Positions 32,266 through 64,000 of a DNA stretch of 64,000 nucleotides are shown piece by piece. This DNA is from Desmodus rotundus. Its lineage: Eukaryota > Chordata > Mammalia > Chiroptera > Phyllostomidae. Position 1 is the first letter of the stretch. Each line of letters starts with the position of its first letter. The notes under the pieces were generated by a model. That model was given only the letters and a program-made list of their open reading frames with translations. It searched no databases and was not told the DNA's origin. Where the stretch lies: positions 20,408,739 to 20,472,738 of the forward strand of contig NC_071397.1 in assembly GCF_022682495.2 (NCBI RefSeq), read 5' to 3'. A program made the translations under genes and the position numbers.

Positions 32266-32299
32266 TTGAGACAACTATTATCCAAAGTTATATGATGTT

Positions 32300-32488
32300 G
32301 GCCCTGGCCGGGTAGCTCAGGTGGTTAGAGAGTCATCTTGACATACCAAGGCTGTGGGTAGTCCAGTCAGGGCACATACAAGAAACAATCAAGGGATGCA
32401 TGAATAAGGGGAAAAACCAATCAATGTTTCTCTCTCTCTCTTTCTGGCTCCTTCCCCCTGACTCACTCAAAACAATAAATTTTTTAAA
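32300..32488 (+). mobile_element. VES-type tRNA-derived SINE
   Basis: Starts with gccctggccgggtagctcag, which contains an A-box-like tagctcaggtgg of the RNA polymerase III promoter. A degenerate B-box region follows (gtagtccagtcagggcacat), then a (TC)n block and an A-rich tail (aacaataaattttttaaa). The head 'GGCCCTGGCCGG-T-x-G-CTCAG' is diagnostic of bat VES SINEs and is the best taxonomic evidence in the window. Confidence 0.85.
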
Positions 32489-32917: not shown

Positions 32918-33330
32918 TGCAGATGGAAGAACAGGGGGGAGGCCCCAGTAGATGGCTTTTGTCTGAGCCGCGGCAGGCTGGTTTCGGGCCAGGATTCCGG
33001 AACAGGCAGGGGCAGGGCAAGGCTGCACCACAAGCCTCCCTCGGGGCAAAGTACCCCACCCTTGAGATATCAGGAAAGGTTCACAGGGTCCCTTAGGTCG
33101 TGTCCGTGGAACTGGACCCTCTCCCTGTCACCCGGAGGAGGGCGCTTTTTTGTCTGATGCACACTTTCACGCAGGTCGGCCACCCCCGCAAAGGAAGAGT
33201 GCCCAGGGAAGAACTAGGGACCCGAGGCCAGCACGGGGTGCCTGCTATGGTTCCCCCCCAAGTGAGGCGGGCCCTGGTGGTCCGGACACAGGCCCACGGA
33301 CGGATTCTCCCGTGGGGAGTCAGGCCAGGG

Positions 33331-33345
33331 CTCGCCAGGGTGGCT
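33331..33345 (-). promoter_or_regulatory. Degenerate CTCF-like site, monomer A1
   Basis: The plus strand reads ctcgccagggtggct where the other six A monomers have the intact core; changes fall inside the GGGGG run. This edge monomer probably binds weakly or not at all. Confidence 0.4.
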
Positions 33346-34293
33346 AAAAGTCTAGCTTTGGCAGACACTTCCCCACCCTGCCCCAAGGGTGCTCACTTGG
33401 ACCCCGCAGGTTCAACTCTGTAAAATCTGTGCGAAACCACTTAATAAGGGAGAGTGACCACTTCAACCTCAGTCTCCCAGAACTCCAAAGCCTTTCTCCC
33501 TGAAGGAAATGGAGAACTCCTGTCCTTGGTGTCCGCAAATGGAATTCACCTATGGGGAAGCTGGGCCCTGCGAGCAGGACCAGGCCCGAGGGCAGCAGCC
33601 CGGGGAGGCTACAGCAGCCACTGTGTCTAGGCCCCGAGATTACCCGGGGACTCTCTCGCGGTCCAGGCGCCCGGTCTCTCCAGGAGAGTGCCCTCGGGGT
33701 CCCTTGACCCGGCAGGACACCTGAATCTCCAGATAAGGGGGCCTTGGCCTCCATGGGGCTCGAATCCCTGGGACCGGGGTGCTACTCACGGGCCTAAGTT
33801 GCGGGAAACACGCAGACTCCTCCGTCCGGTCCTCCCAGTACGAAGATCCCCCTGTTCTTCCATCCGTAAGGGGGACCGCCCTTACAGATGGAAGAACAGT
33901 GGGGAGGCCCACAGGAGATGGCTTTTGTCCCAGCCGCGGCAGGCTGCTTTCCGGCCAGGTATCCGGGACGGGCACAGGCAGGGCAAGGCCGCACCACAAG
34001 CCTCCCTCGGGACTAAGTACCCCACCCTTCAGATATTAGGAAAGGTTCACAGGGTCTCTTAGGTCCGGTCCGTGGAAATGGACCCAATCCCTGTCACCCG
34101 GAGGAGCGCGCTTTTTCCCTGAAGCACACTTTCACGCATGTCTGCCACCCCCACAAAGGAAGAGTGCCCAGGGAAGAACCTGGGACTCGGGGCCTGCACG
34201 GGGTGCCGGCCACGGTTCCCCCCTAATGCGGCGGGCCAGGGTGGTCTGGACTCAGGCCCAGGGACAGATTCTCCCGTGGGGAGTCAGGTCAGG

Positions 34294-34308
34294 GCTCCCC
34301 CTGGTGGC
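34294..34308 (-). promoter_or_regulatory. CTCF-type core motif, monomer A2
   Basis: Minus strand GCCACCAGGGGGAGC, matching the CTCF core consensus (CCASYAGRKGGCRS and CCACCAGGGGGCGC) with one deviation near the end. Spaced 967 bp from the next site. Confidence 0.7.
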
Positions 34309-34814
34309 TAAAAGTCTAGCTTTGGCAGACACTTCCCCACCTGCCCCGAGGCTGCTCACTTAGACCCGGCAGCTTAAACTCTGTAAAATCTGTCCTAAAC
34401 CACTTAATAAGGGAGTGTGACCGCTTCAACCTCAGTCTCCCAGAACTCCAAAGCCTTTCTCCATGAAGGAAATGTAAAACTCCTATCCTTGGTGTCCGCA
34501 AAGGGAATTCACCTGCAGGGAACCTGGGCCCTGCGAGCAGGACCAGGCCCCAAGGTAGCAGCCCAGGGAGGCTACAGCAGCCACTGTGACTAGGCCCCAA
34601 GATTACCCGGGGACTCTCTCGCGGTCCAGGCGCCCGGTCTCTCCTGGATTGTGGCCTCGGGGTTCCTTGACCCCGCAGGAACCCCTGAATCTCCAGATAA
34701 GGGGGCCTCGGTCTCCATGGGGCTCGGAGCCCTGGGACCGGGGTGCAACTCACGGGCCTAACTTGCGGGAAACACGCAGACTCCTCCATCCCGTCCGCCC
34801 CAGGGCGAAGATCC

Positions 34815-34870
34815 CCCTGTTCTTCCATCCGTATGGGGGACCCAGCTTACGGATGGAAGAACAGGGGGGA
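34815..34870. repeat. Inverted repeat in zone A (21-bp perfect arms)
   Basis: Ancestral form of the array hairpin: the arms reading from ccccctgttcttcc inward to the gta and from tac outward to ggaagaacaggggg are exact complements over 21 bp around a 14-nt centre. The other A-monomer junctions (about 33,849-33,910, 35,769-35,834, 36,735-36,800, 37,700-37,765, 38,667-38,732) carry the same structure with arm mismatches. Confidence 0.8.
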
Positions 34871-35260
34871 GGCCCCAGTAGATGGCTTTTGTCCCAGCTG
34901 CGGCAGGCTGCTTTCGGGCCAGGATTCCGGGACAGGCAGGGGCAGGGGAAGGCCGCACCACAAGCCTCCCTTGGGGCAAAGTACCCCACCCTGGAGATAA
35001 CAGGGAAGGTTCACAGGGTCCCTTAGGTCGTGTCCATGGAACTGGACCCTCTCCCTGTCACCCGGAGGAGGGCACTTTTTTGTCTGACGCACACTTTCAC
35101 GCAGGTCAGCCACCCCCCGCAAAGGAAGAGTGCCCAGGGAAGAACTAGGGACCCGGGGCCTGCACGGGGTGCCGGCCATGGTTCCCCCCAAAGTGCGGCA
35201 GGCCCCGGTGGTCCGGACCCAGGCCCAGGGAAGGATTCTCCCATGGGGAGTCAGGTCAGG

Positions 35261-35275
35261 GCTCCCCCTGGTGGC
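35261..35275 (-). promoter_or_regulatory. CTCF-type core motif, monomer A3
   Basis: Minus strand GCCACCAGGGGGAGC, identical in sequence and orientation to the A2 site. Confidence 0.7.
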
Positions 35276-36225
35276 TAAAATTCTAGCTTTGGCAGACACT
35301 TCCCCACCCTGCCCCCAGGGTGCTCACTTGGACCCCACAGCTTCAACTCTGTAAAATCTGGGCTAAACCACTTAATAACGGAGGGTGACCGCTTCAACCT
35401 CAGTCTCCCAGAACTCCAAAGCCTTTCTCCATGAAGGAATCAGAGAACTGCTGTCCTTGGTGTCCGCAAAGGGAATTCACCTGCGGGGAACCTGGGCCCT
35501 GGCGAGCAGGAACAGGCCCCATGGCAGCAGCCCGGGGAGGCTACTGCAGCCACTGTGTCTAGGACCGAGATTACCCGGGGACTCTCTCGGGGCCCAGGCG
35601 CCCTGTCTCTCCTGGAGAGTGCCCTCGGGGTCCCTTGACCCCGCAGGACTCCTGAATCTCCAGATAAGTGGGCCTCGGCCTCCAATAGGCTCGGAGCTCT
35701 GGGACCGGGGTGCTACTCACGGGCTTAAGTTGCGGGAATCCCGCAGACACCTCCATTCCTTCCTCCCCAGTGTGAAGATCCCTCTGTTCTTCCATTCGTA
35801 AGGAGGACCGCCCTTACAGATGGAAGAACAGGGGAGAGGCCCCCAGGAGATGGCTTTTGTCCTAGCCGCGCCAGGCTGGTTTCATGCCAGGATTCCGGGA
35901 TGGGGAGGGGCAGGGCAAGGCCGCACCACAAGCCTCCCTCCGGGCAAGGTACCCTACCCTTGAGATATCAGGAAAGGTTCACAGGGTCCCTTAGGTCGTG
36001 TCCAGGGAAGTGGACCCTCTCCCTGTCACCCGGAGAAGCGCACTTTTTTCCCTGACGCACTTTCACGCAGGTCTGCCACCCCCGCAAAGGCTGAGTGCCC
36101 ATGGAAGAACTAGAGACCCGGGGCCAGCACGGGATGCTGGCCACGGTTCCCCCCCACGTGCGGCGGGCCCAGATGGTCCGGACCCAGGCCCACAGACAGA
36201 TTCTCCTTAGGGGAGTCAGGCCAGG

Positions 36226-36240
36226 GCTCCCCCTGGTGGC
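36226..36240 (-). promoter_or_regulatory. CTCF-type core motif, monomer A4
   Basis: Identical 15-bp core on the minus strand, 965 bp after the A3 site. Confidence 0.7.
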
Positions 36241-37192
36241 TAAAAGTCCAGCTTTGGCAGACAATTCCCCACCCTGCCCCGAGGGTGCTCACTTAGTCCC
36301 CGCAGCTTCACTCTGTAAAATCTGTGCTAAACCACTTAATAAGGGAGTGTGAGCGCTTCAACCTCAATCTCCCAGAGCTCCAAAGACTTTCTCCAGGAAG
36401 GAAATGGAGAACTCCTGTCCTTGGTGTCTGCAAAGGGAATTCACCTGAGGGGAAGCTGGGCCCTGCGAGCAGGACCAGGCCCCAGGGCAGCAGCCCGCGG
36501 AGGCTACTGCAGCCACTGTGTCTAGGCCCCGAGATTACCCGGGGACTCTCTCGGGGCCCAGGCGCCCTGTCTCTCCTGGAGAGTGCCCTAGGGGTCCCTT
36601 GACCCCGCAGGAACCCCTGAATCTCCAGATAAGGGGGCCTCGGCCTCCATGGAACTCGAAGCCCTGGGACCAGGGTGCTACTCACGGGCCTAAGTTGCGG
36701 GAAAAACGCAGATTCCTCCGTCCAGTCCTCCCTAGTGGGAAGATCCCCCTGTTCTTCCATCCGTAAGGGGGACCGCCCTTACAGGTGGAAGAACAGGGGG
36801 GAGACCCACAGGAGATGGCTTTTGTCCCAGCCGCGGCAGGCTGCTTTTGGGCCAGGATTCTGGGACTGGCAGGGCAGGGAAAGGCCCCACCACAAGCCTC
36901 CCTCGGGGCAAAGTACCCCACCCTGGAGATATCAGGGAAGGTTCACAGGGTCCCTTAGGTCGTGTGCGTGGAACTGGACCCTCTCCCTGTCACCCGGAGG
37001 AGGGCACTTTTTTGTCTGACGCACACTTTCACGCAGGTCTGCCACCCCCCGCAAAGGAAGAGTGCCCAGGGAAGAACTAGGGACCCGGGGCCAGCACGGG
37101 GTGCCTGCCACGGTTCCCCCCCAAGTGCCACGGGCCCGGGTGATCCGGACTCAGGCCCAGGGAAGGATTCTCCCATGGGGAGTCAGGTCAGG

Positions 37193-37206
37193 GCTCCCCT
37201 GGTGGC
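37193..37206 (-). promoter_or_regulatory. CTCF-type core motif with 1-bp deletion, monomer A5
   Basis: Minus strand GCCACCAGGGGAGC: one G fewer in the G run, which changes spacing inside the core and may lower affinity. Confidence 0.55.
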
Positions 37207-38158
37207 TAAAAGTCTAGCTTTGGCAGACACTTCCCCACCCTGCCCCGAGGCTGCTCACTTGGACCCCGCAGCTTCAACTCTGTAAAATCTGGGCTAAACC
37301 ACTTAATAACGGAGTGTGACCGCTTCAACCTCAGTCTCCCAAAACTCCAAAGCCTTTCTCCATGAAGGAAACGTAGAACTCCTGTCCTTGGTGTCCGCAA
37401 AGAGAATTCACCTGCGGGGAACCTGGGCCCTGGCGAGCAGGAACAGGCCCCATGGCAGCAGCACGGGGAGGCTACTGCAGCCACTGTGTCTAGGACCGAG
37501 ATTACCCGGGGACTCTCTCGGGGCCCAGGCGCCCTGTCTCTCCTGGAGAGTGTCCTAGGGGTCCCTTGACCCCGCAGCACTCCTGAAACACCAGATAAGT
37601 GGGCCTCGGCCTCCAATAGGCTCAGAGCTCTGGGACTGGGGTGCTACTCACGGGATTAAGTTGCGGGAATCCCGCAGACTCCTCCGTTCCTTCCTCCCCA
37701 GTGTGAAGATCCCACTGTTCTTCCATTCGTAAGGGGGACCGCCCTTACAGATGGAAGAACAGGGGGGAACCCACAGGAGATGGCTTTTGTCGCAGCCGCG
37801 GCAGGCTGCTTTCGGGCTAGGATTCCGGGACTGGCAGGGCAGGGAAAGGCCACACCACAAGCCTCCCTTGGAGCAAAGTACCCTACCCTGGAGATATCAA
37901 GGAAGGTTCACAGGGTCCCTTAGGTCGTGTCCGTGGAACTGGACCCAATCCCTGTCACCCGGAGGAGCGCGCTTTTTTGTATGACGCACACTTTCACGAA
38001 GATCTGCCACCCCCCCGCAAAGGAAGAGTGCCCAGGGAAGAACTAGGGACCCGGGGCCAGCACGGGGTGCCTGCCACGGTTCCCCCCCAAGTGCGGCGGG
38101 CCCGGGTGATCCGGACCCAGGCCCAGGGACAGATTCTCCCCTTGGGAGTCAGGTCAGG

Positions 38159-38173
38159 GCTCCCCCTGGTGGC
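38159..38173 (-). promoter_or_regulatory. CTCF-type core motif, monomer A6
   Basis: Intact 15-bp core on the minus strand. Confidence 0.7.
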
Positions 38174-39123
38174 TAAAAGTCTAGCTTTGGCAGACACTTC
38201 CCCACCCTGCCCCGAGGGTGTTCACTTGGACCCCACAGCTTCAAGTCTGTAAAATCTGTGCTAAACCACTTAATAACGGAGTGTGACCCCTTCAACCTCA
38301 GTCTCCCAGAACTCCAAAGCCTTTCTCCATGAAGGAAATGTAAAACTCCTATCCTTGGTGTCCGCAAAGGGAATTCACCTGAGGGGAATTTCGGCCCTGC
38401 GAGCAGGACCTGTCCCCATGGCAGCAGCCTGGCGAGGCTACAGCAGCCACTGTGTCTAGTCCCGGAGATTACCCGGGGACTCTCTCGCGGTCCAGGCGCC
38501 CTGTCTCTCCTGGAGAGTGCCCTCGGCGTTCCTTGACCCCGCAGGACCCCTGAATCTCCAGATAAGGGGGCCTCGGCCTCCATGGGGCTCGAAGCCCTGG
38601 GACTGGGATGCTACTCACGGGCCTAAATTGCGGGAAACCCGCAGACAACTCCGTCCTGTTCTCCCCAGTGCGAAGATCCCCCCGTTCTTCCAACCGTAAA
38701 GGGGACCCCCCTTACGGATGGAAGAACAGGGGGGAGGCCCAAAGGGGATGGCGTTTGTCCGAGCGGCGGCAGGCTGGATTCGGGCCAGGATTTCGGGACT
38801 GACAGGGCAGGGAAATTCCGCACCACAACCCTCCCTCGGGGCAAAGTACCCCACCCTTCAGATATCAGGAAAGGTTCAAAGGGTCCCTTAGGTCCTGTCC
38901 CTGGAACTGGACCCTCTCCCTGTCACCCGGAGGAGCGCGCTTTTTTCCCTGACGCACACTTTCACGCAGGTCTGCCACCCCCGCAAAGGAAGAGTGCCCA
39001 GGGAAGAACTAGGGACCCGGGGCCTGAACGGGGTGCCTGCCACGGTTCCCCCGCAAGTGCAGCGGGACCTGGTGGTCCGGACCCAGGCCCAGGGAAGGAT
39101 TCTCTCATGGGGAGTCAGATATG

Positions 39124-39138
39124 GCTCCCCCTGGTGGC
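39124..39138 (-). promoter_or_regulatory. CTCF-type core motif, monomer A7
   Basis: Intact 15-bp core on the minus strand, although the flanking bases differ (atggctcc instead of agggctcc). It is the last canonical core before the array changes type. Confidence 0.7.
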
Positions 39139-39540
39139 TAAAAGTCTAGCTTTGGCAGACAATTCCCCACCCTGCCCGGAGGCTGCTCACTTGGACCCCG
39201 CAGCTTCAACTCTGTAAAATCTGTGCTAAACCACTTAATAACGGAGGGTGACCGCTTCAACATCAGTCTCCCAGAACTCCAAAACCTTTCTCCAGGAAGG
39301 AATTGGAGAACTCCTGTCCTTGGTGTCCGCAAAGGGAATTCACCTGCGGGGAACCTGGGCCATTGCGAACAGGAACAGGCCCCATGGCAGCAGCCCAGGG
39401 AGGCTACTGCAGCCACTGTGTCTAACCCCGAGATTACCCGGGGACTGTCTCCGGGCCCAGGCTCCCTGTCTCTCCGGGAGCGTGCACTAGGGGTCCCTTG
39501 ACCCCGCACGACTCCGGAAACTCCAGATAAGGGGGCCTCT

Positions 39541-39678
39541 GCCCACTCTTGAGAGGTCACGTGCCCTACCCTTGAGGGGTCACGTGACCCACCCTTGAGA
39601 GGTCACGTACCCCACCCTTGAAGGGTCACGTGACCCACCCTTGAGGCGTCACGTGACCCACCCTTGAGAGGTCACAGC
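39541..39678 (+). repeat. 23-bp minisatellite with CACGTG E-boxes
   Basis: Six copies of a 23-bp unit (cccacccttgagaggtcacg plus tga). CACGTG occurs at 39,558, 39,581, 39,627 and 39,650, with CACGTA at 39,604, all exactly 23 bp apart. Several copies form the palindrome GTCACGTGAC, the preferred site of USF-type bHLH-ZIP factors. Each unit resembles the single 'ccccacccttgagatatcag' stretch of zone A monomers, from which it probably expanded. Confidence 0.85.
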
Positions 39679-40210
39679 AGTTTCACAGGGTCCCTGTGCA
39701 CCTGTCCGTGGAAACAAAGCCCTCCCTGCCACTAAGAGGACCGCGCCTTTTCTCCTAGGCCACACTGCCCAGCAGCACTCCCAGCCCCGCACAGACAGTG
39801 TGCTAAAGACAGACTAGGGGACTGGGGGCCTGGGCGGGGGATTTTCCAGGGAACTCTCCTAGGGCCCGGTGCCCTGTGTCCCCCGGGGAGTGGCCACACC
39901 GTTCCTTGACCCCGCAGGACACTTGCATCCAGCAAAAAGCAGCCCTCTGCCTCCACAGGGCTCAAACACCTGGGCCCAGTGTTCGAGCACCTGGCGTACG
40001 TGGAGGCAAATCCGCAGACCCCTCCGCCCCGCCCCTACCACTGCAAAGATTCCCCTGTTCTTCTATGCGAAAGGGGTCCCCCTTTCCGCTTGGGAGTACA
40101 TGGGGAGGCCCCAGGACATGGCTTTTCTCCGAGCCTCGGCTGGCTGGTTTCGGGCCAAGACCTGGCCACCCATGCGCACTCAGGCTCCCCCACCACAAGC
40201 CTCCCTCGGG

Positions 40211-40220
40211 TCACGTGACC
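40211..40220. promoter_or_regulatory. Isolated E-box palindrome
   Basis: tcacgtgacc with CACGTG at 40,212-40,217, in the position where other B monomers carry the minisatellite; a single-copy version of the same unit. A second single copy (ctcacgtgac) has CACGTG at 40,776-40,781. Confidence 0.6.
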
Positions 40221-40732
40221 CACCCTTGAGCTGTCAGACCATTTGCACAGGGTCCCTAGGCACCTGTCTGGGAAACGGAAGCCCACCCTACCACCAAGAG
40301 GACCGCGCGATTTCCCATGGGCCACACTTCCCAGCAGATCTCCCAGCTCCTCAGAGACAGTGTGCGCAGGAAAGACTTGGGGACCGGGGACCTGGGGGGG
40401 GATTTTCCAAGGGGCTCTCTAAGGGCCAGGCGTCCTCTCTCACCCGGTGAGTGCCCACGCCGTCCCTTGACCCTCGCAGGACACCTGATTCCCGCGACAA
40501 GCGGCCCTCCAACTCCATGGGGCTGGGACACCTGGGCCGGGTGTGCGAGCAACTGGCCTAAGTGGAGGCAAACCAGCAGACCCCTCCGGCCCGAACCCAC
40601 CACTGCGAAGATCCCCGTTTTCTTCCATCCGTGAAGGGGTCCTCCTTGAGGAGTGGAGGAACATGGGGAGGGCCCCAGGAGATGGCTTTTCTCACAGCCG
40701 AGTCTGCCTGGTTTCCGGCCAACACCTGGGCC

Positions 40733-40743
40733 GCGCATGCGCA
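40733..40743. promoter_or_regulatory. NRF1-type site, zone B
   Basis: GCGCATGCGCA, a match to the palindromic NRF1 consensus (YGCGCAYGCGCR) apart from its first base. Confidence 0.65.
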
Positions 40744-41295
40744 CTCAGGCTCCCCAGCACACGCCTCCCTCGGCTCACGTGACCCACCCTTTAGAGGCCA
40801 TAGCAGTTTCACAGAGTCCCTGGGCACCTGTCCGTGGACACAGGCGCCCTCCCTGCCACCTAGAGGACCACGCGAATTCCGCTGGGGCACACTGCCCAGA
40901 AGCACTCCGAGCCTGGCACAGACACTGTGCGCAGGATAGACTTGAGGACAAGGGGCCTGGGCGGGAAATTTTCCAGGGAACTCTCTAAAGGCCAGGTGCC
41001 CTCTGTCGCCCGGGCAGTGCCCACGCCGTCCCTTGACCCCGCAGGACACTTGCATCCAGCGATAAGCAGCCCTCTGCCTCCACGCGGCTCAAACACCTGG
41101 GCCCGGTGTGCGAGCACCTGGCGTACCTGGTGGCAAAACCACGGACCCCTCCACCCCGTCCCTACCACTGCAAAGATCCCCCTGTTCTTCCATGCATAAA
41201 GGGGGCCCCCTTTCCGCTTGGGAGAACATGGGGAGGTCCCAGGAGATGGCTTTTCTCCGAGCCGCGGCTGGCTAGTTTCGAGACAAGACCTGGGC

Positions 41296-41307
41296 TGCGC
41301 ATGCGCA
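41296..41307. promoter_or_regulatory. NRF1-type site, zone B, perfect palindrome
   Basis: TGCGCATGCGCA, a full match to the NRF1 consensus. Confidence 0.7.
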
Positions 41308-41336
41308 CTCAGGCTCCCCCACCACAAGCCTCCCTC

Positions 41337-41484
41337 CGGTCAGGGGACCCACCCTTGAGGGGTCTGGTGACACACCCTTGAGAGGTTTTGTGACACACCC
41401 TTCAGAGGTCACCTGACCCACCTATGAGGGGTCACGTGACCCACCCTTGAGGGGTCAGGTGACCCACCCTTGAGGGGTCACAGC
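41337..41484 (+). repeat. 23-bp minisatellite, second copy
   Basis: Six 23-bp units, more diverged than the first array: only one keeps GTCACGTGAC (41,431-41,440), while others read caggtga, ctggtga or cctgacc at that position. It joins the next monomer at 'gtcacagcagtttcacaggg', the same join as the first array. Confidence 0.8.
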
Positions 41485-41973
41485 AGTTTCACAGGGTCCC
41501 TGTGCACCTGTCCGTTGAAACAGAAGCCCTCCCTGCCACTCAGAGGACTGCGCCATTTCCCCTAGGCCACACTGCCCAGCACCACTCCCAGCCCCGCACA
41601 GTGTGCTAAGGACAGACTTGGGGTCTGGGGGCCTGGGCGGGGGATTTTCCAGGGAACTCTCCTAGGGCCCGGTGCCCTGTGTCCCCCGGGGAGTGGCCAC
41701 ACCGTTCCTTGACCCCGCAGGACACTTGCATCCAGCAATAAGCAGCCCTCTGCCTCCACGGGGCTCAAACACCTGGGCCCAGTGTGCGAGCACCTGGCGT
41801 ACGTGGAAGCAAACCCGCAGACCCCTCCGCCCAGTCCCTACCACTGCAAAGATCCCCCTGTTCTTCCATGCGTAAAGGGGTCCCCTTTTCCGCTTGGTAG
41901 TACATGGGGAGGCCCCCAGGACACGGCTTTTCTCCGAGCCGCGGCTGGCTGGTTTCGGGCCTAGACCTGGGCC

Positions 41974-41984
41974 GCGCATGCGCA
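41974..41984. promoter_or_regulatory. NRF1-type site, zone B
   Basis: GCGCATGCGCA in the same position of the monomer as the sites at 40,733 and 41,296; the equivalent position near 40,168 is mutated (cccatgcgca). Confidence 0.65.
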
Positions 41985-42012
41985 CTCAGGCTCCCCCACC
42001 ACAAGCCTCCCT

Positions 42013-42154
42013 CGGGTCACGGGACCCACCCTTGAGGGGTCTCGGGACCCACCCTTGAGAGGTATTGTGACCCACCCTTCAGAGGTCACCTGACCTAACT
42101 ATGAGGGGTCTCGTGACCCACCCTTGAGGGGTCACGTGACCCACCCTTGAGCTG
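42013..42154 (+). repeat. 23-bp minisatellite, third copy
   Basis: Six 23-bp units; GTCACGTGAC survives in the last one (42,131-42,140). The variant order (gggtca.., ggtctc.., ggtatt.., ggtcacctga.., ggtctcg.., ggtcacg..) parallels the second array, indicating duplication of the whole block. Confidence 0.8.
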
Positions 42155-42533
42155 TCAGACCATTTGTACAGGGTCCCTAGGCACCTGTCTGGGAAAAGGA
42201 AGCCCACCCTGCCACACAGAGGACCGAGCCATTTCCCATGGGCCACACTTCCCAGCAGATCACCCAGCTCCTCAGAGACAGTGTGCGCAGGAAAAACTTG
42301 GGGACCGGGGGCCTGGGCGGGGGATTTTCCAAGGGGCTCTCTAAGGGCCAGGCGTCCTCTCTCACCCGGTGAGTGCCCACGCCGTCCCTTGACCCTCGTA
42401 GGACACCTGATTCCCACGATAAGGGGCCCTCCAACTCCATGGGGCTGGGACATCTGGGCCGGGTGTGCGAGCAACTGGCTTACGTGGAGGCAAACCAGCG
42501 GACCCCTCCCGCCCGAACCCACCACTGCGAACA

Positions 42534-44430
42534 TCCCCCTTTTCTTCCATCCGTAAAGGGGTCCTCCTTGAGGAGTGGAGGAACAAGGGGAGGGGCCCAG
42601 GAGATGGCTTTTGTCCGAGCCTCGGCAAGGTGGTTTCGGACCCAGAGGCGGAGCCGCGCAGGCGCAAGCAAGCCCCACCTCAAGCCCATCCCTCCGGGCT
42701 ACGAGCCACACCCCCCTTGAGATATCAGGCCAGGTTCACAGGGTTCCTGGGCTGGTGTCAGAGTTAAGGGAAGCCCTCCCTGCCACCCAGAGGACCGCGC
42801 GTTTTCCCGTGGACCACACTTCCCAGCAGCCCTCCCATCCCCGCAGAGGCAGAGTGCCAGGGAAGAACTAGGGACCTGGGGCCGGGAAGAGGGGCCGGCC
42901 ACGGTTCCGCGCCAGGTGGAGCGGGTCCGGGCGGGCGGGCGGGACCCTCGTCCACGGACCGGTTCTCCCGTGGGGAGTCTGGCCTTGCCCCGCCTGGGAG
43001 GCTAAGAGCCTTGCTTCGCCTGCAATGCCCCCACCCTGCCACAGGGCGGCAGACTTGGACCCAGCCGCTTCAACCCTCCAGTCTCTGCTGAACCACCCAA
43101 AAATGGAGTGTGACCGCTGCGACCTCAGTCCCCGAGAGCTCGAACCCCCACCTCTGTGAGGGAATCGGCGGCCTCCTGTCCTTGGCGTCCGCAAAAGGCA
43201 TTCACCTGCGGTGAACCTGGGCCTCGGGCGAGCAGGGCCAGGCCCCATGGTAGGAGCCCGGGGAGGCAATGGCAGCCTCTGCGGCCAGGCCTCGGGCTCT
43301 CCCCGGGGCTCTCTCGGGGCACGGGCAACATCTCTCGCCTAGAGCGTGCCCACGCCATCCCTTGAGCCCCGCGAGACACCTGCTTCCCGTGATAAGAGGC
43401 CCCCTGCCTCCGTGGAGCTTGGAACTCTGGGGCCGGGCTGCGGGTCACTGGGCTAAGTGGCTGGAAACGCGCAGACCCCTCCGTCCCGACCGCCCAACTG
43501 CGAAGGACAGGGGGGAGGCCCCCAGGAGATGGCTTTTCTTAGAGCCGCGACTGGCCAGTTTCGGGCCAAGACGCGGTACCCGGCAGGCTCAGGGCAGGCA
43601 GCCCCACCAGAAGCCTCCCTAGGGGCAATGGGGCCCACCCTGGACATATCAGGCCTGCTTCACAGGGTCCCTGGGGTCGTGTCCGTGGAACTGGGAGCTC
43701 TCCCCGCCACCCAGAGGTCCGATCCTTTTCCCGTGGACCCCACTTGCCAGCCCGTCTCCCACCCCGCCAGAGGCAGAGTGCCAGGGAAGAACCAGGGACC
43801 TGGGGCCGGGAACAGGGGCCGGCCACGGTTCCGGGCCAGGTGGGGCGGGCCCGGGGAGGCGGGACCCACGCCCTGGGACCCGGTCTCCCGGGGGGTCTCG
43901 GGCCTGTGACCTGCCCGGGGGGCTGAGAGTCTTTCTTGGCTCAAACGGCCCCACCCTGCCCCGAGGCGGCAAATCTGCACCGAGACGCTTATACTCTCTG
44001 AAGTCTGGGCTGAACTTTGAGAGAAGGGACTGTGTGGGATGCGACCTGGGTCCCACAGAGCTCGAACCCCCCCTCCCCGTGAAGGGATCCGCGGCCTGTG
44101 GTCCTTGGTGTGCGCAAAAGGCATTCACCTGCGGAGAACCTGGGCCCAGGTGAGCGTGACCAGGCCCCGCGGCAGGAGCCTGGGGAGGCCACTGGAGCCA
44201 CGGGGGCCAGGGCTGGGCATTTTCCCGGGTGCTCTCTCTGGTCCCAGGCGCCCTCTCTTGCCCGGGGAGGGCCCACGCCATCCCCTGACTCCCGCAGGAC
44301 GCCTGCATCCCGCCATAAGCAGCCCACCTCCTCCATGGAGCTGGGACACATGGGGCCGGGGTGCGAGCAACTGGCCTACGAGGCGGCAAACCCGCAGACC
44401 CCTCCGTCCCGTCCCCATCACTGCGAAGAT
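42534..44430 (+). repeat. Zone C edge unit (unit 0)
   Basis: A dimer of full length with many private differences. Its hairpin is degenerate (the centre reads ggtcctccttgaggagtgga, as in zone B), so it is the transition between B and C. It carries the NRF1-type core GCGCAGGCGCA at 42,656-42,666. Confidence 0.85.
43839..43864 (+). promoter_or_regulatory. GC-box cluster, one per zone C unit
   Basis: tggggcgggcccggggaggc followed by ggg: two Sp1-type boxes (GGGGCGGG and GGGAGGCGGG) in the C2 monomer, repeated every 1,898 bp. The paired C1 position (about 42,925-42,945) carries gggcgggcgggcggg. Confidence 0.55.
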
Positions 44431-44552
44431 CCCCCTGTTCTTCCATCCGTAAAGGGGTCACCCTTTACGGATGGAAGAACAGGGGGGAGGCCCCCAGGAG
44501 ATGGCTTTTGTCCGAGCCGCGGCTGGGTGGTTTCGGGCCCAGAGGCGGGGCC

Positions 44553-44563
44553 GCGCAGGCGCA
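44553..44563. promoter_or_regulatory. NRF1-type site, one per zone C unit
   Basis: GCGCAGGCGCA, the complement of the common NRF1 core (T)GCGCCTGCGC. It recurs at the same place in every unit (42,656, 44,553, 46,451 and then every 1,898 bp), about 120 bp after the hairpin and next to aggcggggcc (GC box). Confidence 0.65.
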
Positions 44564-44672
44564 AGCAGGCCCCACCTCAAGCCCATCCCTCCGGGCTACG
44601 AGCCACCCCCCCCTTGAGATATCAGGCCAGGTTCACCGGGTTCCTGGGCTGGTGTCAGAGTTAAGGGAAGCC

Positions 44673-44690
44673 CTCCCTGCCACCCAGAGG
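44673..44690 (-). promoter_or_regulatory. Weak CTCF-like motif conserved in zone C
   Basis: Minus strand CCTCTGGGTGGCAGGGAGGG, 12 of 14 positions fitting CCASYAGRKGGCRS, with T for A at position 3 and G for A at position 6. The C2 monomer has the equivalent CCTCTGGGTGGCGGGGAGAG (about 43,695-43,715). Repeats in all units. Binding is uncertain because the substituted central A is strongly preferred. Confidence 0.35.
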
Positions 44691-46328
44691 ACCGCGCGTT
44701 TTCCCGTGGACCACACTTCCCAGCAGCTCTCCCACCCCCGCAGAGGCAGAGTGCCAGGGAAGAACTAGGGACCTGGGGCCGGGAAGAGGGGCCGGCCACG
44801 GTTCCGCGCCAGGTGGAGCGGGTCCGGGCGGGCGGGCGGGACCCTCGTCCACGGACCGGTTCTCCCGTGGGGAGTCTGGCCTGTGCCCCGCCTGGGAGGC
44901 TAAGAGCCTTGCTTCGCCTGCAACGCCCCCACCCTGCCACAAGGCGGCAGACTTGGACCCAGCCGCTTCAACCTTCCAGTCTCTGCTGAACCACCCAAAA
45001 ATGGAGTGTGACCGCTGCGACCTCAGTCCCCCAGAGCTCGGAAACCCACCTCTGTGAGGGAATCGGCGGCCTCCTGTCCTTGGCGTCCGCAAAAGGCATT
45101 CACCTGCGGTGAACCTGGGCCTCGGGCGAGCAGGGCCAGGCCCCATGGTAGGAGCCCGGGGAGGCAATGGCAGCCTCTGCGGCCAGGCCTCGGGCTCTCC
45201 CCGGGGCTCTCTCGGGGCACGGGCAACATCTCTCGCCTAGAGCGTGCCCACGCCATCCCTTGAGCCCCGCGAGACACCTGCTTCCCGTGATAAGAGGCCC
45301 CCTGCCTCCGTGGAGCTTGGAACTCTGGGGCCGGGCTGCGGGTCACTGGGCTAAGTGGCTGGAAACGCGCAGACCCCTCCGTCCCGACCGCCCAACTGCG
45401 AAGGACAGGGGGGAGGCCCCCAGGAGATGGCTTTTCTTAGAGCCGCGACTGGCCAGTTTCGGGCCAAGACGCGGTACCCGGCAGGCTCAGGGCAGGCAGC
45501 CCCACCAGAAGCCTCCCTAGGAGCAATGGGGCCCACCCTGGACATATCAGGCCTGCTTCACAGGGTCCCTGGGGTCGTGTCCGTGGAACTGGGAGCACTC
45601 CCCGCCACCCAGAGGTCCGATCCTTTTCCCGTGGACCCCACTTGCCAGCCCGTCTCCCACCCCGCCAGAGGCAGAGTGCCAGGGAAGAACCAGGGACCTG
45701 GGGCCGGGAACAGGGGCCGGCCACGGTTCCGGGCCAGGTGGGGCGGGCCCGGGGAGGCGGGACCCACGCCCTGGGACCCGGTCTCCCGGGGGGTCTCGGG
45801 CCCGTGACCTGCCCGGGGGGCTGAGAGTCTTTCTTGGCTCAAACGGCCCCACCCTGCCCCGAGGCGGCAAATCTGCACCGAGACGCTTATACTCTCTGAA
45901 GTCTGGGCTGAACTTTGAGAGAAGGGACTGTGTGGGATGCGACCTGGGTCCCACAGAGCTCGAACCCCCCCTCCCCGTGAAGGGATCCGCGGCCTGTGGT
46001 CCTTGGTGTGCGCAAAAGGCATTCACCTGCGGAGAACCTGGGCCCAGGTGAGCGGGACCAGGCCCCGCGGCAGGAGCCTGGGGAGGCCACTGGAGCCACG
46101 GGGGCCAGGGCTGGGCATTTTCCCGGGTGCTCTCTCGGGTCCCAGGCGCCCTCTCTCGCCCGGGGAGTGCCCACGGCGTCCCTTCACCCCCGCAGGACGC
46201 CTGCATCCTGCCATAAGCGGCCCACATCCTCCATGGAGCTGGGACACATGGGGCCTGGGTGCGAGCAACGGGCCTACATGGCGGCAAAACCGCAGACCCC
46301 TCCGTCCCGTCCTCACCACAGCGAAGAT

Positions 46329-46384
46329 CCCCCTGTTCTTCCATCCGTAAAGGGGTCCCCCTTTACGGATGGAAGAACAGGGGG
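46329..46384. repeat. 27-bp perfect inverted repeat, one per zone C unit
   Basis: The left arm starts ccccctgttcttccatccgt and ends aaagggg; after a 2-bp centre (tc) the exact complement follows, ending ggaagaacaggggg. The same perfect structure starts at 48,226, 50,124, 52,022, 53,920, 55,818, 57,716, 59,614, 61,512 and 63,410; the copy at 44,431 has a mismatched centre. As DNA this can extrude a cruciform; as RNA it folds into a long stem with a minimal loop. Both arms carry ATGGAAGAACAG, so mirror-image ATGs face away from the centre. Confidence 0.95.
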
Positions 46385-48225
46385 GAGGCCCCCAGGAGAT
46401 GGCTTTTGTCCGAGCCGCGGCTGGGTGGTTTCGGGCCCAGAGGCGGGGCCGCGCAGGCGCAAGCAGGCCCCACCTCAAGCCCATCCCTCCGGGCTACGAG
46501 CCACCCCCCCCTTAGATATCAGGCCAGGTTCACCGGGTTCCTGGGCTGGTGTCAGAGTTAAGGGAAGCCCTCCCTGCCACCCAGAGGACCGCGCGTTTTC
46601 CCGTGGACCACACTTCCCAGCAGCTCTCCCACCCCCGCAGAGGCAGAGTGCCAGGGAAGAACTAGGGACCTGGGGCCGGGAAGAGGGGCCGGCCACGGTT
46701 CCGCGCCAGGTGGAGCGGGTCCGGGCGGGCGGGCGGGACCCTCGTCCACGGACCGGTTCTCCCGTGGGGAGTCTGGCCTGTGCCCCGCCTGGGAGGCTAA
46801 GAGCCTTGCTTCGCCTGCAACGCCCCCACCCTGCCACAAGGCGGCAGACTTGGACCCAGCCGCTTCAACCTTCCAGTCTCTGCTGAACCACCCAAAAATG
46901 GAGTGTGACCGCTGCGACCTCAGTCCCCCAGAGCTCGGAAACCCACCTCTGTGAGGGAATCGGCGGCCTCCTGTCCTTGGCGTCCGCAAAAGGCATTCAC
47001 CTGCGGTGAACCTGGGCCTCGGGCGAGCAGGGCCAGGCCCCATGGTAGGAGCCCGGGGAGGCAATGGCAGCCTCTGCGGCCAGGCCTCGGGCTCTCCCCG
47101 GGGCTCTCTCGGGGCACGGGCAACATCTCTCGCCTAGAGCGTGCCCACGCCATCCCTTGAGCCCCGCGAGACACCTGCTTCCCGTGATAAGAGGCCCCCT
47201 GCCTCCGTGGAGCTTGGAACTCTGGGGCCGGGCTGCGGGTCACTGGGCTAAGTGGCTGGAAACGCGCAGACCCCTCCGTCCCGACCGCCCAACTGCGAAG
47301 GACAGGGGGGAGGCCCCCAGGAGATGGCTTTTCTTAGAGCCGCGACTGGCCAGTTTCGGGCCAAGACGCGGTACCCGGCAGGCTCAGGGCAGGCAGCCCC
47401 ACCAGAAGCCTCCCTAGGGGCAATGGGGCCCACCCTGGACATATCAGGCCTGCTTCACAGGGTCCCTGGGGTCGTGTCCGTGGAACTGGGAGCTCTCCCC
47501 GCCACCCAGAGGTCCGATCCTTTTCCCGTGGACCCCACTTGCCAGCCCGTCTCCCACCCCGCCAGAGGCAGAGTGCCAGGGAAGAACCAGGGACCTGGGG
47601 CCGGGAACAGGGGCCGGCCACGGTTCTGGGCCAGGTGGGGCGGGCCCGGGGAGGCGGGACCCACGCCCTGGGACCCGGTCTCCCGGGGGGTCTCGGGCCC
47701 GTGACCTGCCCGGGGGGCTGAGAGTCTTTCTTGGCTCAAACGGCCCCACCCTGCCCCGAGGCGGCAAATCTGCACCGAGACGCTTATACTCTCTGAAGTC
47801 TGGGCTGAACTTTGAGAGAAGGGACTGTGTGGGATGCGACCTGGGTCCCACAGAGCTCGAACCCCCCCTCCCCGTGAAGGGATCCGCGGCCTGTGGTCCT
47901 TGGTGTGCGCAAAAGGCATTCACCTGCGGAGAACCTGGGCCCAGGTGAGCGTGACCAGGCCCCGCGGCAGGAGCCTGGGGAGGCCACTGGAGCCACGGGG
48001 GCCAGGGCTGGGCATTTTCCCGGGTGCTCTCTCTGGTCCCAGGCGCCCTCTCTTGTCCGGGGAGGGCCCACGCCATCCCCTGACTCCCGCAGGACGCCTG
48101 CATCCCGCCATAAGCGGCCCACCTCCTCCATGGAGCTGGGACACATGGGGCCGGGGTGCGAGCAACTGGCCTACGAGGCGGCAAACCCGCAGACCCCTCC
48201 GTCCCGTCCCCATCACTGCGAAGAT
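46329..48225 (+). repeat. Zone C unit 2 (1,897 bp)
   Basis: The only short step: a single base is missing at about 46,511-46,514 (cccttagata for ccttgagata), which accounts for a longer 296-codon frame crossing here. Confidence 0.9.
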
Positions 48226-50123
48226 CCCCCTGTTCTTCCATCCGTAAAGGGGTCCCCCTTTACGGATGGAAGAACAGGGGGGAGGCCCCCAGGAGATGGC
48301 TTTTGTCCGAGCCGCGGCTGGGTGGTTTCGGGCCCAGAGGCGGGGCCGCGCAGGCGCAAGCAGGCCCCACCTCAAGCCCATCCCTCCGGGCTACGAGCCA
48401 CCCCCCCCTTGAGATATCAGGCCAGGTTCACCGGGTTCCTGGGCTGGTGTCAGAGTTAAGGGAAGCCCTCCCTGCCACCCAGAGGACCGCGCGTTTTCCC
48501 GTGGACCACACTTCCCAGCAGCTCTCCCACCCCCGCAGAGGCAGAGTGCCAGGGAAGAACTAGGGACCTGGGGCCGGGAAGAGGGGCCGGCCACGGTTCC
48601 GCGCCAGGTGGAGCGGGTCCGGGCGGGCGGGCGGGACCCTCGTCCACGGACCGGTTCTCCCGTGGGGAGTCTGGCCTGTGCCCCGCCTGGGAGGCTAAGA
48701 GCCTTGCTTCGCCTGCAACGCCCCCACCCTGCCACAAGGCGGCAGACTTGGACCCAGCCGCTTCAACCTTCCAGTCTCTGCTGAACCACCCAAAAATGGA
48801 GTGTGACCGCTGCGACCTCAGTCCCCCAGAGCTCGGAAACCCACCTCTGTGAGGGAATCGGCGGCCTCCTGTCCTTGGCGTCCGCAAAAGGCATTCACCT
48901 GCGGTGAACCTGGGCCTCGGGCGAGCAGGGCCAGGCCCCATGGTAGGAGCCCGGGGAGGCAATGGCAGCCTCTGCGGCCAGGCCTCGGGCTCTCCCCGGG
49001 GCTCTCTCGGGGCACGGGCAACATCTCTCGCCTAGAGCGTGCCCACGCCATCCCTTGAGCCCCGCGAGACACCTGCTTCCCGTGATAAGAGGCCCCCTGC
49101 CTCCGTGGAGCTTGGAACTCTGGGGCCGGGCTGCGGGTCACTGGGCTAAGTGGCTGGAAACGCGCAGACCCCTCCGTCCCGACCGCCCAAATGCGAAGGA
49201 CAGGGGGGAGGCCCCCAGGAGATGGCTTTTCTTAGAGCCGCGACTGGCCAGTTTCGGGCCAAGACGCGGTACCCGGCAGGCTCAGGGCAGGCAGCCCCAC
49301 CAGAAGCCTCCCTAGGGGCAATGGGGCCCACCCTGGACATATCAGGCCTGCTTCACAGGGTCCCTGGGGTCGTGTCCGTGGAACTGGGAGCTCTCCCCGC
49401 CACCCAGAGGTCCGATCCTTTTCCCGTGGACCCCACTTGCCAGCCCGTCTCCCACCCCGCCAGAGGCAGAGTGCCAGGGAAGAACCAGGGACCTGGGGCC
49501 GGGAACAGGGGCCGGCCACGGTTCCGGGCCAGGTGGGGCGGGCCCGGGGAGGCGGGACCCACGCCCTGGGACCCGGTCTCCCGGGGGGTCTCGGGCCCGT
49601 GACCTGCCCGGGGGGCTGAGAGTCTTTCTTGGCTCAAACGGCCCCACCCTGCCCCGAGGCGGCAAATCTGCACCGAGACGCTTATACTCTCTGAAGTCTG
49701 GGCTGAACTTTGAGAGAAGGGACTGTGTGGGATGCGACCTGGGTCCCACAGAGCTCCAACACCCCCTCCCCGTGAAGGGATCCGCGGCCTGTGGTCCTTG
49801 GTGTGCGCAAAAGGCATTCACCTGCGGAGAACCTGGGCCCAGGTGAGCGTGACCAGGCCCCGCGGCAGGAGCCTGGGGAGGCCACTGGAGCCACGGGGGC
49901 CAGGGCTGGGCATTTTCCCGGGTGCTCTCTCTGGTCCCAGGCGCCCTCTCTTGTCCGGGGAGGGCCCACGCCATCCCCTGACTCCCGCAGGACGCCTGCA
50001 TCCCGCCATAAGCAGCCCACCTCCTCCATGGAGCTGGGACACATGGGGCCGGGGTGCGAGCAACTGGCCTACGAGGCGGCAAACCCGCAGACCCCTCCGT
50101 CCCGTCCCCATCACTGCGAAGAT
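48226..50123 (+). repeat. Zone C unit 3
   Basis: Diagnostic bases: ttttGtccg after the hairpin, ctgaaCcaccc, gggccCgtgac and ctcttGTccgg. Confidence 0.9.
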
Positions 50124-52021
50124 CCCCCTGTTCTTCCATCCGTAAAGGGGTCCCCCTTTACGGATGGAAGAACAGGGGGGAGGCCCCCAGGAGATGGCTT
50201 TTGTCCGAGCCGCGGCTGGGTGGTTTCGGGCCCAGAGGCGGGGCCGCGCAGGCGCAAGCAGGCCCCACCTCAAGCCCATCCCTCCGGGCTACGAGCCACC
50301 CCCCCCTTGAGATATCAGGCCAGGTTCACCGGGTTCCTGGGCTGGTGTCAGAGTTAAGGGAAGCCCTCCCTGCCACCCAGAGGACCGCGCGTTTTCCCGT
50401 GGACCACACTTCCCAGCAGCTCTCCCACCCCCGCAGAGGCAGAGTGCCAGGGAAGAACTAGGGACCTGGGGCCGGGAAGAGGGGCCGGCCACGGTTCCGC
50501 GCCAGGTGGAGCGGGTCCGGGCGGGCGGGCGGGACCCTCGTCCACGGACCGGTTCTCCCGTGGGGAGTCTGGCCTGTGCCCCGCCTGGGAGGCTAAGAGC
50601 CTTGCTTCGCCTGCAACGCCCCCACCCTGCCACAAGGCGGCAGACTTGGACCCAGCCGCTTCAACCTTCCAGTCTCTGCTGAACCACCCAAAAATGGAGT
50701 GTGACCGCTGCGACCTCAGTCCCCCAGAGCTCGGAAACCCACCTCTGTGAGGGAATCGGCGGCCTCCTGTCCTTGGCGTCCGCAAAAGGCATTCACCTGC
50801 GGTGAACCTGGGCCTCGGGCGAGCAGGGCCAGGCCCCATGGTAGGAGCCCGGGGAGGCAATGGCAGCCTCTGCGGCCAGGCCTCGGGCTCTCCCCGGGGC
50901 TCTCTCGGGGCACGGGCAACATCTCTCGCCTAGAGCGTGCCCACGCCATCCCTTGAGCCCCGCGAGACACCTGCTTCCCGTGATAAGAGGCCCCCTGCCT
51001 CCGTGGAGCTTGGAACTCTGGGGCCGGGCTGCGGGTCACTGGGCTAAGTGGCTGGAAACGCGCAGACCCCTCCGTCCCGACCGCCCAACTGCGAAGGACA
51101 GGGGGGAGGCCCCCAGGAGATGGCTTTTCTTAGAGCCGCGACTGGCCAGTTTCGGGCCAAGACGCGGTACCCGGCAGGCTCAGGGCAGGCAGCCCCACCA
51201 GAAGCCTCCCTAGGGGCAATGGGGCCCACCCTGGACATATCAGGCCTGCTTCACAGGGTCCCTGGGGTCGTGTCCGTGGAACTGGGAGCTCTCCCCGCCA
51301 CCCAGAGGTCCGATCCTTTTCCCGTGGACCCCACTTGCCAGCCCGTCTCCCACCCCGCCAGAGGCAGAGTGCCAGGGAAGAACCAGGGACCTGGGGCCGG
51401 GAACAGGGGCCGGCCACGGTTCCGGGCCAGGTGGGGCGGGCCCGGGGAGGCGGGACCCACGCCCTGGGACCCGGTCTCCCGGGGGGTCTCGGGCCTGTGA
51501 CCTGCCCGGGGGGCTGAGAGTCTTTCTTGGCTCAAACGGCCCCACCCTGCCCCGAGGCGGCAAATCTGCACCGAGACGCTTATACTCTCTGAAGTCTGGG
51601 CTGAACTTTGAGAGAAGGGACTGTGTGGGATGCGACCTGGGTCCCACAGAGCTCGAACCCCCCCTCCCCGTGAAGGGATCCGCGGCCTGTGGTCCTTGGT
51701 GTGCGCAAAAGGCATTCACCTGCGGAGAACCTGGGCCCAGGTGAGCGTGACCAGGCCCCGCGGCAGGAGCCTGGGGAGGCCACTGGAGCCACGGGGGCCA
51801 GGGCTGGGCATTTTCCCGGGTGCTCTCTCTGGTCCCAGGCGCCCTCTCTTGTCCGGGGAGGGCCCACGCCATCCCCTGACTCCCGCAGGACGCCTGCATC
51901 CCGCCATAAGCAGCCCACCTCCTCCATGGAGCTGGGACACATGGGGCCGGGGTGCGAGCAACTGGCCTACGAGGCGGCAAACCCGCAGACCCCTCCGTCC
52001 CGTCCCCATCACTGCGAAGAT
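50124..52021 (+). repeat. Zone C unit 4
   Basis: As unit 3 but with gggccTgtgac, the start of the block in which this base is common. Confidence 0.9.
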
Positions 52022-63409: not shown

Positions 63410-64000
63410 CCCCCTGTTCTTCCATCCGTAAAGGGGTCCCCCTTTACGGATGGAAGAACAGGGGGGAGGCCCCCAGGAGATGGCTTTTGTCCGAGCCGCG
63501 GCTGGGTGGTTTCGGGCCCAGAGGCGGGGCCGCGCAGGCGCAAGCAGGCCCCACCCCAAGCCCATCACTCTGGGCTACGAGCCACCCCCCCCTTGAGATA
63601 TCAGGCCAGGTTCACCGGGTTCCTGGGCTGGTGTCAGAGTTAAGGGAAGCCCTCCCTGCCACCCAGAGGACCGCGCGTTTTCCCGTGGACCACACTTCCC
63701 AGCAGCTCTCCCACCCCCGCAGAGGCAGAGTGCCAGGGAAGAACTAGGGACCTGGGGCCGGGAAGAGGGGCCGGCCACGGTTCCGCGCCAGGTGGAGCGG
63801 GTCCGGGCGGGCGGGTGGGACCCTCGTCCACGGACCGGTTCTCCCGTGGGGAGTCTGGCCTGTGCCCCGCCTGGGAGGCTAAGAGCCTTGCTTCGCCTGC
63901 AACGCCCCCACCCTGCCACAAGGCGGCAGACTTGGACCCAGCCGCTTCAACCTTCCAGTCTCTGCTGAACGACCCAAAAATGGAGTGTGACCGCTGCGAC
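63410..64000 (+). repeat. Zone C unit 11, partial at window end
   Basis: Starts with the perfect hairpin and is cut off by the window; the array therefore continues to the right. Confidence 0.9.

What the first reader, a model, noticed from the sequence alone, without database searches (positions are those of the whole stretch)
32918..39538. Tandem array of near-consensus CTCF cores with ~966-bp spacing
Six cores GCCACCAGGGGGAGC (one with a G deleted) lie on the minus strand at 34,294, 35,261, 36,226, 37,193, 38,159 and 39,124, in steps of 967, 965, 967, 966 and 965 bp, all in the same orientation; a seventh, leftmost copy is mutated. A run of same-orientation CTCF cores in a GC-rich non-coding array next to LINE-rich DNA is the layout expected of a chromatin-architecture element such as a super-loop or TAD anchor.
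Basis: partly seen in the sequence, partly recalled or inferred. Interest (0 to 1): 0.8.

Follow-up and report, generated by a model that had tools for sequence, protein, structure and literature searches.

The report
Decaying edge of a GC-rich satellite
This is the old, decaying edge of a large GC-rich satellite repeat block, probably in a bat genome; the repeated CTCF-like motif is real and strong in five of seven outer units, but it was copied along with the repeat, shows no clear sign of being specially preserved, and is absent from the young main body of the array.

Summary
Five of seven ~966-bp units (32,922-39,541) carry a 20.5-21.7-bit CTCF match on the minus strand; one has lost a base (5.7 bits) and the leftmost is destroyed (-4.5 bits). 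The six cores are one motif copied by tandem duplication. The 966-bp units are the outer part of a longer satellite: 7 outer units (mean 90% identical), 5 shorter units lacking the CTCF place (39,542-42,573; 85%), then eleven full A+B dimers of ~1,898 bp running off the window (mean 99% within A or B). None of the 22 dimer monomers has the site (all below 0 bits there). In the outer units the core varies as much as CpG-free sequence elsewhere (4 deviants, mean 4.0), so no selection is detected, with low power. Best reading: the decayed edge of a higher-order satellite with a hitch-hiking CTCF motif that may still bind CTCF. Also found: a hairpin at unit junctions (perfect 26-bp stem in the two young copies folded) and GTCACGTGAC (USF-type) sites in the middle units. 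Binding and loops cannot be tested here.

The parts
32918..39541 (.). Outer units (old1-old7): seven tandem units of 965-967 bp (the last cut at 825 bp), mean pairwise identity 90.1% (88.3-95.0%)
34292..34310 (-). CTCF match 20.5 bits (old2)
35259..35277 (-). CTCF match 20.5 bits (old3)
36224..36242 (-). CTCF match 20.5 bits (old4)
37193..37206 (-). CTCF core with one base deleted, 5.65 bits (old5)
38157..38175 (-). CTCF match 20.5 bits (old6)
39122..39140 (-). CTCF match 21.7 bits (old7)
33330..33344 (-). Destroyed CTCF core, -4.5 bits (old1)
39542..42573 (.). Middle units: five of 548-681 bp, mean identity 84.7% (79.5-95.0%), lacking the part of the unit that holds the CTCF place
39542..39675 (.). 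23-bp sub-repeat, 5.8 copies; holds 3 of the 6 GTCACGTGAC
41338..41480 (.). 23-bp sub-repeat, 6.2 copies; holds 1 GTCACGTGAC
42014..42151 (.). 23-bp sub-repeat, 6.0 copies; holds 1 GTCACGTGAC
42574..64000 (.). Homogenised part: eleven full A (930-932 bp) + B (966 bp) dimers, ~1,898 bp, and part of a twelfth A; mean identity A-A 99.3%, B-B 98.9%, A-B 77.5%; no CTCF match of 13.3 bits or more
46329..46384 (.). Perfect 26-bp hairpin with 4-base loop at a B-to-A junction (one of 11 such junctions bearing both arms, left arms at 44,431 to 63,410; 2 of the 11 folded)
32918..32938 (.). Left edge of the array: begins inside the right arm of the junction hairpin
44934..44952 (+). Weak plus-strand CTCF-like site, 12.9 bits, at the same place in 11 of 12 A units (the one at 43,036 in A0 scores 8.2)

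Best explanation
This is the left edge of a GC-rich, apparently non-coding satellite array that grew by repeated local amplification. Shown: divergent outer and middle units (90% and 85% mean identity) beside a young, nearly uniform A+B dimer array (99%); the outer units group with A and the middle units with B in a midpoint-rooted tree. Inferred: unequal exchange or break-induced replication keeps the inside uniform while units at the edge escape and decay. One CTCF motif present in the outer units was copied with each unit and is being lost at about the rate of comparable sequence. If the intact copies are bound (I give about 45%), their minus-strand orientation would stop cohesin arriving from the left flank, giving at most a local edge boundary as a by-product. 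That chromosome architecture depends on them I put at about 10%.
For: Layout and identities. The split outer+A against middle+B has bootstrap support 99, and outer units against all others 100 (20 of 34 units). Core: 4 deviants in 15 columns; mean 4.0 in 221 CpG-free windows, 66.5% of which do as well or better; for 19 columns 5 against 4.97 in 164 windows. Against all windows 33% do as well, and 16% have 5 or more of 7 copies exact. 0 of 22 A/B monomers and 0 of 5 middle units have the site. No Pfam family in the 9 frames scanned, no Rfam match at gathering score. A comparable edge-to-core design is described for the human chromosome 8 centromere (PMC8099727, passages).
Against: Divergence does not fall steadily inward: the middle units (84.7%) are more divergent than the outer ones (90.1%), so a simple oldest-outside order is not shown. 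Leaving out old1, the core has 1 deviant in 15 columns and only 5.2% of windows do as well (not CpG-matched), so weak constraint on six copies is not excluded. In the CpG-free test the core itself is not strictly CpG-free, because the broken old1 copy holds a CG. Seven copies give little power. The grouping in the tree depends on midpoint rooting. The other edge and the chromosomal place are not in the window, and the ancestral state of the site was not computed.
Confidence: 0.8

Rival explanations
1. A CTCF-bound tandem-repeat architecture element of the DXZ4/FIRRE kind: several same-facing sites act together as a loop or TAD anchor.
For: Five 20.5-21.7-bit sites within 5 kb, same orientation, in GC-rich repeats. 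The core of the intact copies has no CpG, so methylation inside the core could not block it (sequence). Without old1 the core is among the 5.2% best-kept windows.
Against: [quoted passage not shown] here the core is not better kept than CpG-free sequence. The homogenised units lack it, 0 of 22.
Confidence: 0.1
2. A composite heterochromatin barrier of the chicken HS4 kind: CTCF sites in the outer units plus USF-type E-box palindromes in the middle units separate a silenced satellite from the flank.
For: GTCACGTGAC occurs 6 times in the window, all in the middle units, and CACGTG 8 times there; 100 shuffles of that stretch give a mean of 0.63 and at most 2 CACGTG. HS4 needs a USF1/USF2 site for barrier activity and a CTCF site for enhancer blocking (PMC3140996, passages).
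Against: Five of the six palindromes sit in tandem 23-bp sub-repeats, so they too are largely one motif copied. HS4's VEZF1 sites were not looked for. No chromatin data. In HS4 the CTCF site is dispensable for barrier activity. That CACGTG is a USF site is recalled; other bHLH proteins fit too.
Confidence: 0.06
3. The array is an active or former centromere, and the junction hairpin is a functional motif in place of a CENP-B box.
For: Dimeric higher-order repeat with decayed edge; both hairpin arms at 11 of 11 B-to-A junctions, the 2 folded having a perfect 26-bp stem, z -8.1 and -9.9; no exact CENP-B box; dyad symmetries are reported at centromeres of organisms outside the great apes (PMC8997354, passages).
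Against: No CENP-A data or chromosomal position. The dyads in that review are mostly short (under 10 bp), unlike this one. Only 0.2 CENP-B boxes are expected by chance, so their absence tells only that the units do not carry one each. Bat CpG-rich blocks are reported mainly at scaffold ends, with some internal peaks (PMC9264310, section 10), so a subtelomeric place fits as well. 68% GC is unusual for a centromere (recalled).
Confidence: 0.25

Closest known systems
Layered higher-order alpha-satellite arrays (human chromosome 8 centromere, PMC8099727, passages)
   Same: Highly identical higher-order repeats inside, divergent units at the edge; two alternating monomer types
   Different: Monomers of 930-967 bp at 61-68% GC, not 171 bp; no CENP-B box; only one edge seen; the middle units are more divergent than the outermost; centromere position unknown
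DXZ4 macrosatellite (PMC3218863, passages)
   Same: GC-rich tandem repeat, not obviously coding, with a CTCF motif in a unit
   Different: Only outer units carry the motif; the homogenised units do not; motif not detectably better conserved; X linkage unknown
D4Z4 macrosatellite (PMC2639723, abstract and section 10)
   Same: Tandem repeat with a CTCF site; there CTCF binding is lost as copies multiply
   Different: No Pfam family in the 9 frames scanned here; the site is missing from the homogenised units by sequence, not by copy number
Chicken beta-globin HS4 insulator (PMC3140996, abstract and passages)
   Same: CTCF and USF-type motifs near each other at a possible chromatin edge
   Different: Here both are repeat-borne and up to kilobases apart; VEZF1 sites not examined; no functional data

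Membership tests
Layered higher-order-repeat satellite | Multi-monomer unit with copies more than 95% identical while monomers within the unit differ | tested here: met
   A-A mean 99.3% (lowest 96.7%), B-B 98.9% (lowest 97.1%), A-B 77.5% over 11 dimers
Layered higher-order-repeat satellite | More divergent units at the edge than inside | tested here: met
   Outer 90.1% and middle 84.7% mean identity against about 99% inside; the order of outer and middle is not monotonic
Layered higher-order-repeat satellite | Mirror symmetry at the other edge | not testable with these tools
   The array runs past 64,000; the genome search did not complete
Alpha satellite | About 171-bp monomer | tested here: not met
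   Units of 548-681 and 930-967 bp
Centromeric satellite | CENP-A occupancy | not testable with these tools
   No chromatin data
Centromeric satellite | CENP-B box (absent in several mammals, PMC8997354 passages) | tested here: not met
   0 exact matches in 64,000 bases (pattern recalled)
DXZ4-like CTCF macrosatellite | CTCF motif in the homogenised units | tested here: not met
   0 of 22 A/B monomers at the corresponding place; no hit of 13.3 bits or more in 42,574-64,000
DXZ4-like CTCF macrosatellite | CTCF region better conserved than the rest of the unit | tested here: inconclusive
   All seven copies: 4 deviants against a mean of 4.0 in CpG-free windows, not better. Without old1: best 5.2% of windows, not CpG-matched. 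Low power
DXZ4-like CTCF macrosatellite | X-linked, near PLS3 | not testable with these tools
CTCF loop or TAD anchor | CTCF motif above background with flanking columns | tested here: met
   Five sites of 20.5-21.7 bits; 1 of 2000 shuffles reaches 20.5
CTCF loop or TAD anchor | CTCF/cohesin occupancy and Hi-C loop or boundary | not testable with these tools
   No ChIP or Hi-C data on hand
HS4-like composite insulator | CTCF site plus USF site | tested here: met
   Motifs only: CTCF in 5 of 7 outer units; GTCACGTGAC 6 times in the middle units
HS4-like composite insulator | VEZF1 sites and barrier activity | not tested
   VEZF1 motif not scanned; activity needs a reporter assay

The most novel reading that the evidence does not exclude
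The satellite's outer units act as a self-made insulator: decayed units bearing minus-strand CTCF sites, then units bearing USF-type palindromes, screen the flanking chromosome from the heterochromatic core. The core lacks both motifs and so is free to be silenced, while amplification keeps leaving insulator-bearing units at the edge.
Probability: 0.06. Interest if true: 0.75.

Novelty: new member of a known kind. Interest (0 to 1): 0.3.

Why it matters
It shows how a convincing regulatory pattern (six evenly spaced, same-facing CTCF cores) can arise from satellite amplification alone, and gives a cheap test for it: compare the motif with the rest of the unit and with the homogenised core. If the novel reading were true, satellites would carry their own boundary elements at their ageing edges. 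The array itself is a mammalian example, outside alpha satellite, of a dimeric higher-order repeat with a decayed edge and a strong hairpin at alternate junctions.

Tried and rejected
Coding macrosatellite (DUX4-like and the like): no support; 9 of the 45 listed open frames of 150 aa or more in 32-52 kb were scanned and gave no Pfam family at E 0.1. RNA or tRNA-derived unit: no Rfam match at gathering score and no tRNA in the window. CENP-B box: none. Copies elsewhere: an exact 24-base piece of the unit has 0 matches in viral contigs (that tool says records of the window's own genome may be left out); the other collections on hand are of bacteria, archaea, phages, plasmids or metagenomes and were not searched. 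Literature: nine searches, five of them with bat words. Among the titles and abstract starts listed, which are capped lists (for example 20 of 80 and 8 of 124 papers), I saw none on a CTCF-bearing satellite in bats or on a ~966 or ~1,898-bp bat satellite; the library holds only open-licence papers, so this does not show that none exists. Dating: not computed; at a recalled rate of about 2.5e-9 per site per year, 10% pairwise divergence would be some 20 million years.
Full report
Observation. The exact 15-base core occurs five times on the minus strand, at 34,294, 35,261, 36,226, 38,159 and 39,124. A one-base-deleted copy lies at 37,193-37,206 and a mutated one at 33,330. With a 19-column CTCF matrix (MA0139.1 counts from memory) the five intact sites score 20.5 (four) and 21.7 (one) bits out of 26.1; the 20.5-bit score has p 6.4e-8 with equal bases and 2.1e-7 at 61% GC. 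Only 1 of 2000 dinucleotide shuffles of unit old3 reaches 20.5 bits; the mean best score is 9.1. The one clear departure from the consensus within the core is an A where the matrix prefers C; the intact core has no CpG.

Independence. The copies sit in tandem repeats of 965-967 bp, so regular spacing and common orientation follow from duplication. The evidence amounts to one strong motif in one unit, not six.

What the array is. K-mer spacing shows period ~966 and its multiples from 33.5 to 39.5 kb, mixed periods to 43 kb, and 1,897-1,898 from 44.5 kb to the end of the window. Cutting at the junction motif gives seven outer units (last one truncated), five middle units of 548-681 bp, and eleven full A+B dimers with part of a twelfth A. 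Mean identity, gaps left out: outer 90.1%, middle 84.7%, A 99.3%, B 98.9%, A against B 77.5%. Within the dimers A0 is about 97% like the other A copies, and B1 and B10 about 97.5% like the other B copies. GC is 41% in the flank and 61, 63 and 68% in the three parts. In a tree of 20 of the 34 units (all 12 outer and middle, 8 of 22 A/B) the split outer+A against middle+B has support 99, and the outer units against all others 100; reading these as two lineages rests on the midpoint root. The general layout, divergent repeats at the edge and identical higher-order repeats inside, is that reported for human chromosome 8 (PMC8099727, passages). It is not a perfect match: here the middle units are more divergent than the outermost.

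The CTCF place across the array. Intact in 5 of 7 outer units; 5.65 bits in old5 and -4.5 in old1; deleted in 5 of 5 middle units; below 0 bits at the corresponding place in 22 of 22 A and B monomers. In 42,574-64,000 no site reaches 13.3 bits on either strand. A weaker plus-strand site of 12.9 bits recurs in 11 of 12 A units, the remaining one (A0) scoring 8.2. It is the closest thing to CTCF in the young array and too weak to lean on. One middle unit has an unrelated 13.6-bit match at 40,851.

Is the core conserved? Over the seven outer units the 15 core columns hold 4 departures from the majority; the mean window holds 6.2 and 33% of windows do as well or better. Because the intact core has no CpG and CpGs mutate fast, the fairer comparison is with CpG-free windows: 221 of them, mean 4.0 departures, 66.5% with 4 or fewer; for 19 columns, 5 departures against 4.97 in 164 windows. 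The core window is not strictly CpG-free itself, since the broken old1 copy holds a CG. Leaving out old1, the core has 1 departure and 5.2% of windows do as well (6.6% for 19 columns, not CpG-matched); this is the result most favourable to constraint. Old3 and old5 are 95% identical, so even the seven copies are not independent. I conclude that no constraint is detected, with low power.

How it most likely works. Inside, exchange or replication-based amplification keeps the A+B dimer uniform; units that fall outside that zone decay (inferred). The CTCF motif rode along in the outer units; whether it is ancestral and was lost in A, or arose in the outer units, was not determined. If bound, minus-strand sites stop cohesin coming from the left (orientation rule recalled), so any loop would enclose the left flank rather than the satellite. 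D4Z4 gives a precedent for a repeat-borne CTCF site whose binding is lost as copies multiply (PMC2639723, abstract and section 10).

First, a hairpin: both arms (up to 4 substitutions) are found at 6 of 6 outer junctions and 11 of 11 B-to-A junctions; no arm is found at the 11 A-to-B junctions. The 2 of 11 B-to-A hairpins folded have a perfect 26-bp stem, -33.1 kcal/mol, z -8.1 and -9.9; the 6 of 6 outer ones are imperfect, z -5.0 to -7.9; the one middle junction folded has z -3.7 and the one A-to-B junction folded -0.5. The array's left edge (32,918) begins inside this hairpin's right arm. Dyad symmetries, mostly short, are reported at centromeres outside the great apes (PMC8997354, passages), and no CENP-B box is present. 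Second, the middle units hold GTCACGTGAC 6 times, five of them in 23-bp sub-repeats, and CACGTG 8 times (shuffle mean 0.63, maximum 2 in 100 shuffles); the dimers hold no CACGTG. This is a USF-type site (recalled). CTCF and USF sites together recall HS4 (PMC3140996, abstract and passages), but these too are repeat-borne.

Origin of the window. A SINE at about 32,283-32,480 looks like the bat VES family (recalled, no library here), and an L1 ORF1 fragment lies at 3,297-4,034. The bat reading is plausible and unproven. Bat scaffolds are reported to have Mb-level CpG-rich blocks, mainly at their ends, with internal peaks in one species (PMC9264310, abstract and sections 10 and 16). None of the satellite unit sizes of two phyllostomids that I saw in PMC12467311 (passages and part of a table) is near 966 or 1,898 bp.

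Verdict. The pattern is real; the claim that the repetition marks an architecture element is not supported by conservation or by the homogenised array. What it is: the decayed edge of a higher-order satellite, a new member of a known kind.

Noticed in passing
46,329-46,384 and ten other B-to-A junctions; outer junctions 33,848-38,733: Hairpin at unit junctions, perfect 26-bp stem in the two young copies folded; in the dimers it is kept at alternate junctions only.
   Followed up: partly
39,542-42,151: Three expansions of a 23-bp sub-repeat in the middle units, holding five of the window's six GTCACGTGAC (USF/TFE-type palindrome, recalled); the sixth is at 40,210.
   Followed up: partly
32,918: The array's left end starts within the hairpin's right arm, as if the break happened at the palindrome.
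   Followed up: no
33,330-33,344: The destroyed core in old1 differs by clustered changes that make a short inverted repeat (GCCA GGG TGGC), as a template-switch mutation would.
   Followed up: no
44,934 and every ~1,898 bp, plus strand: Weak CTCF-like site (12.9 bits), facing opposite to the outer-unit sites, in 11 of 12 A units.
   Followed up: partly
45,402-46,367 and 62,483-63,448: B1 and B10 form a distinct B variant, about 97.5% like the other nine B copies and 99.1% like each other.
   Followed up: no
22,750-22,768 minus strand: Isolated 18.6-bit CTCF match in the left flank, same orientation as the array's sites.
   Followed up: no
3,297-4,034 minus strand: L1 ORF1 fragment (Pfam Transposase_22 and Tnp_22_dsRBD).
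   Followed up: yes
32,283-32,480: tRNA-derived SINE resembling the bat VES family (recalled).
   Followed up: no
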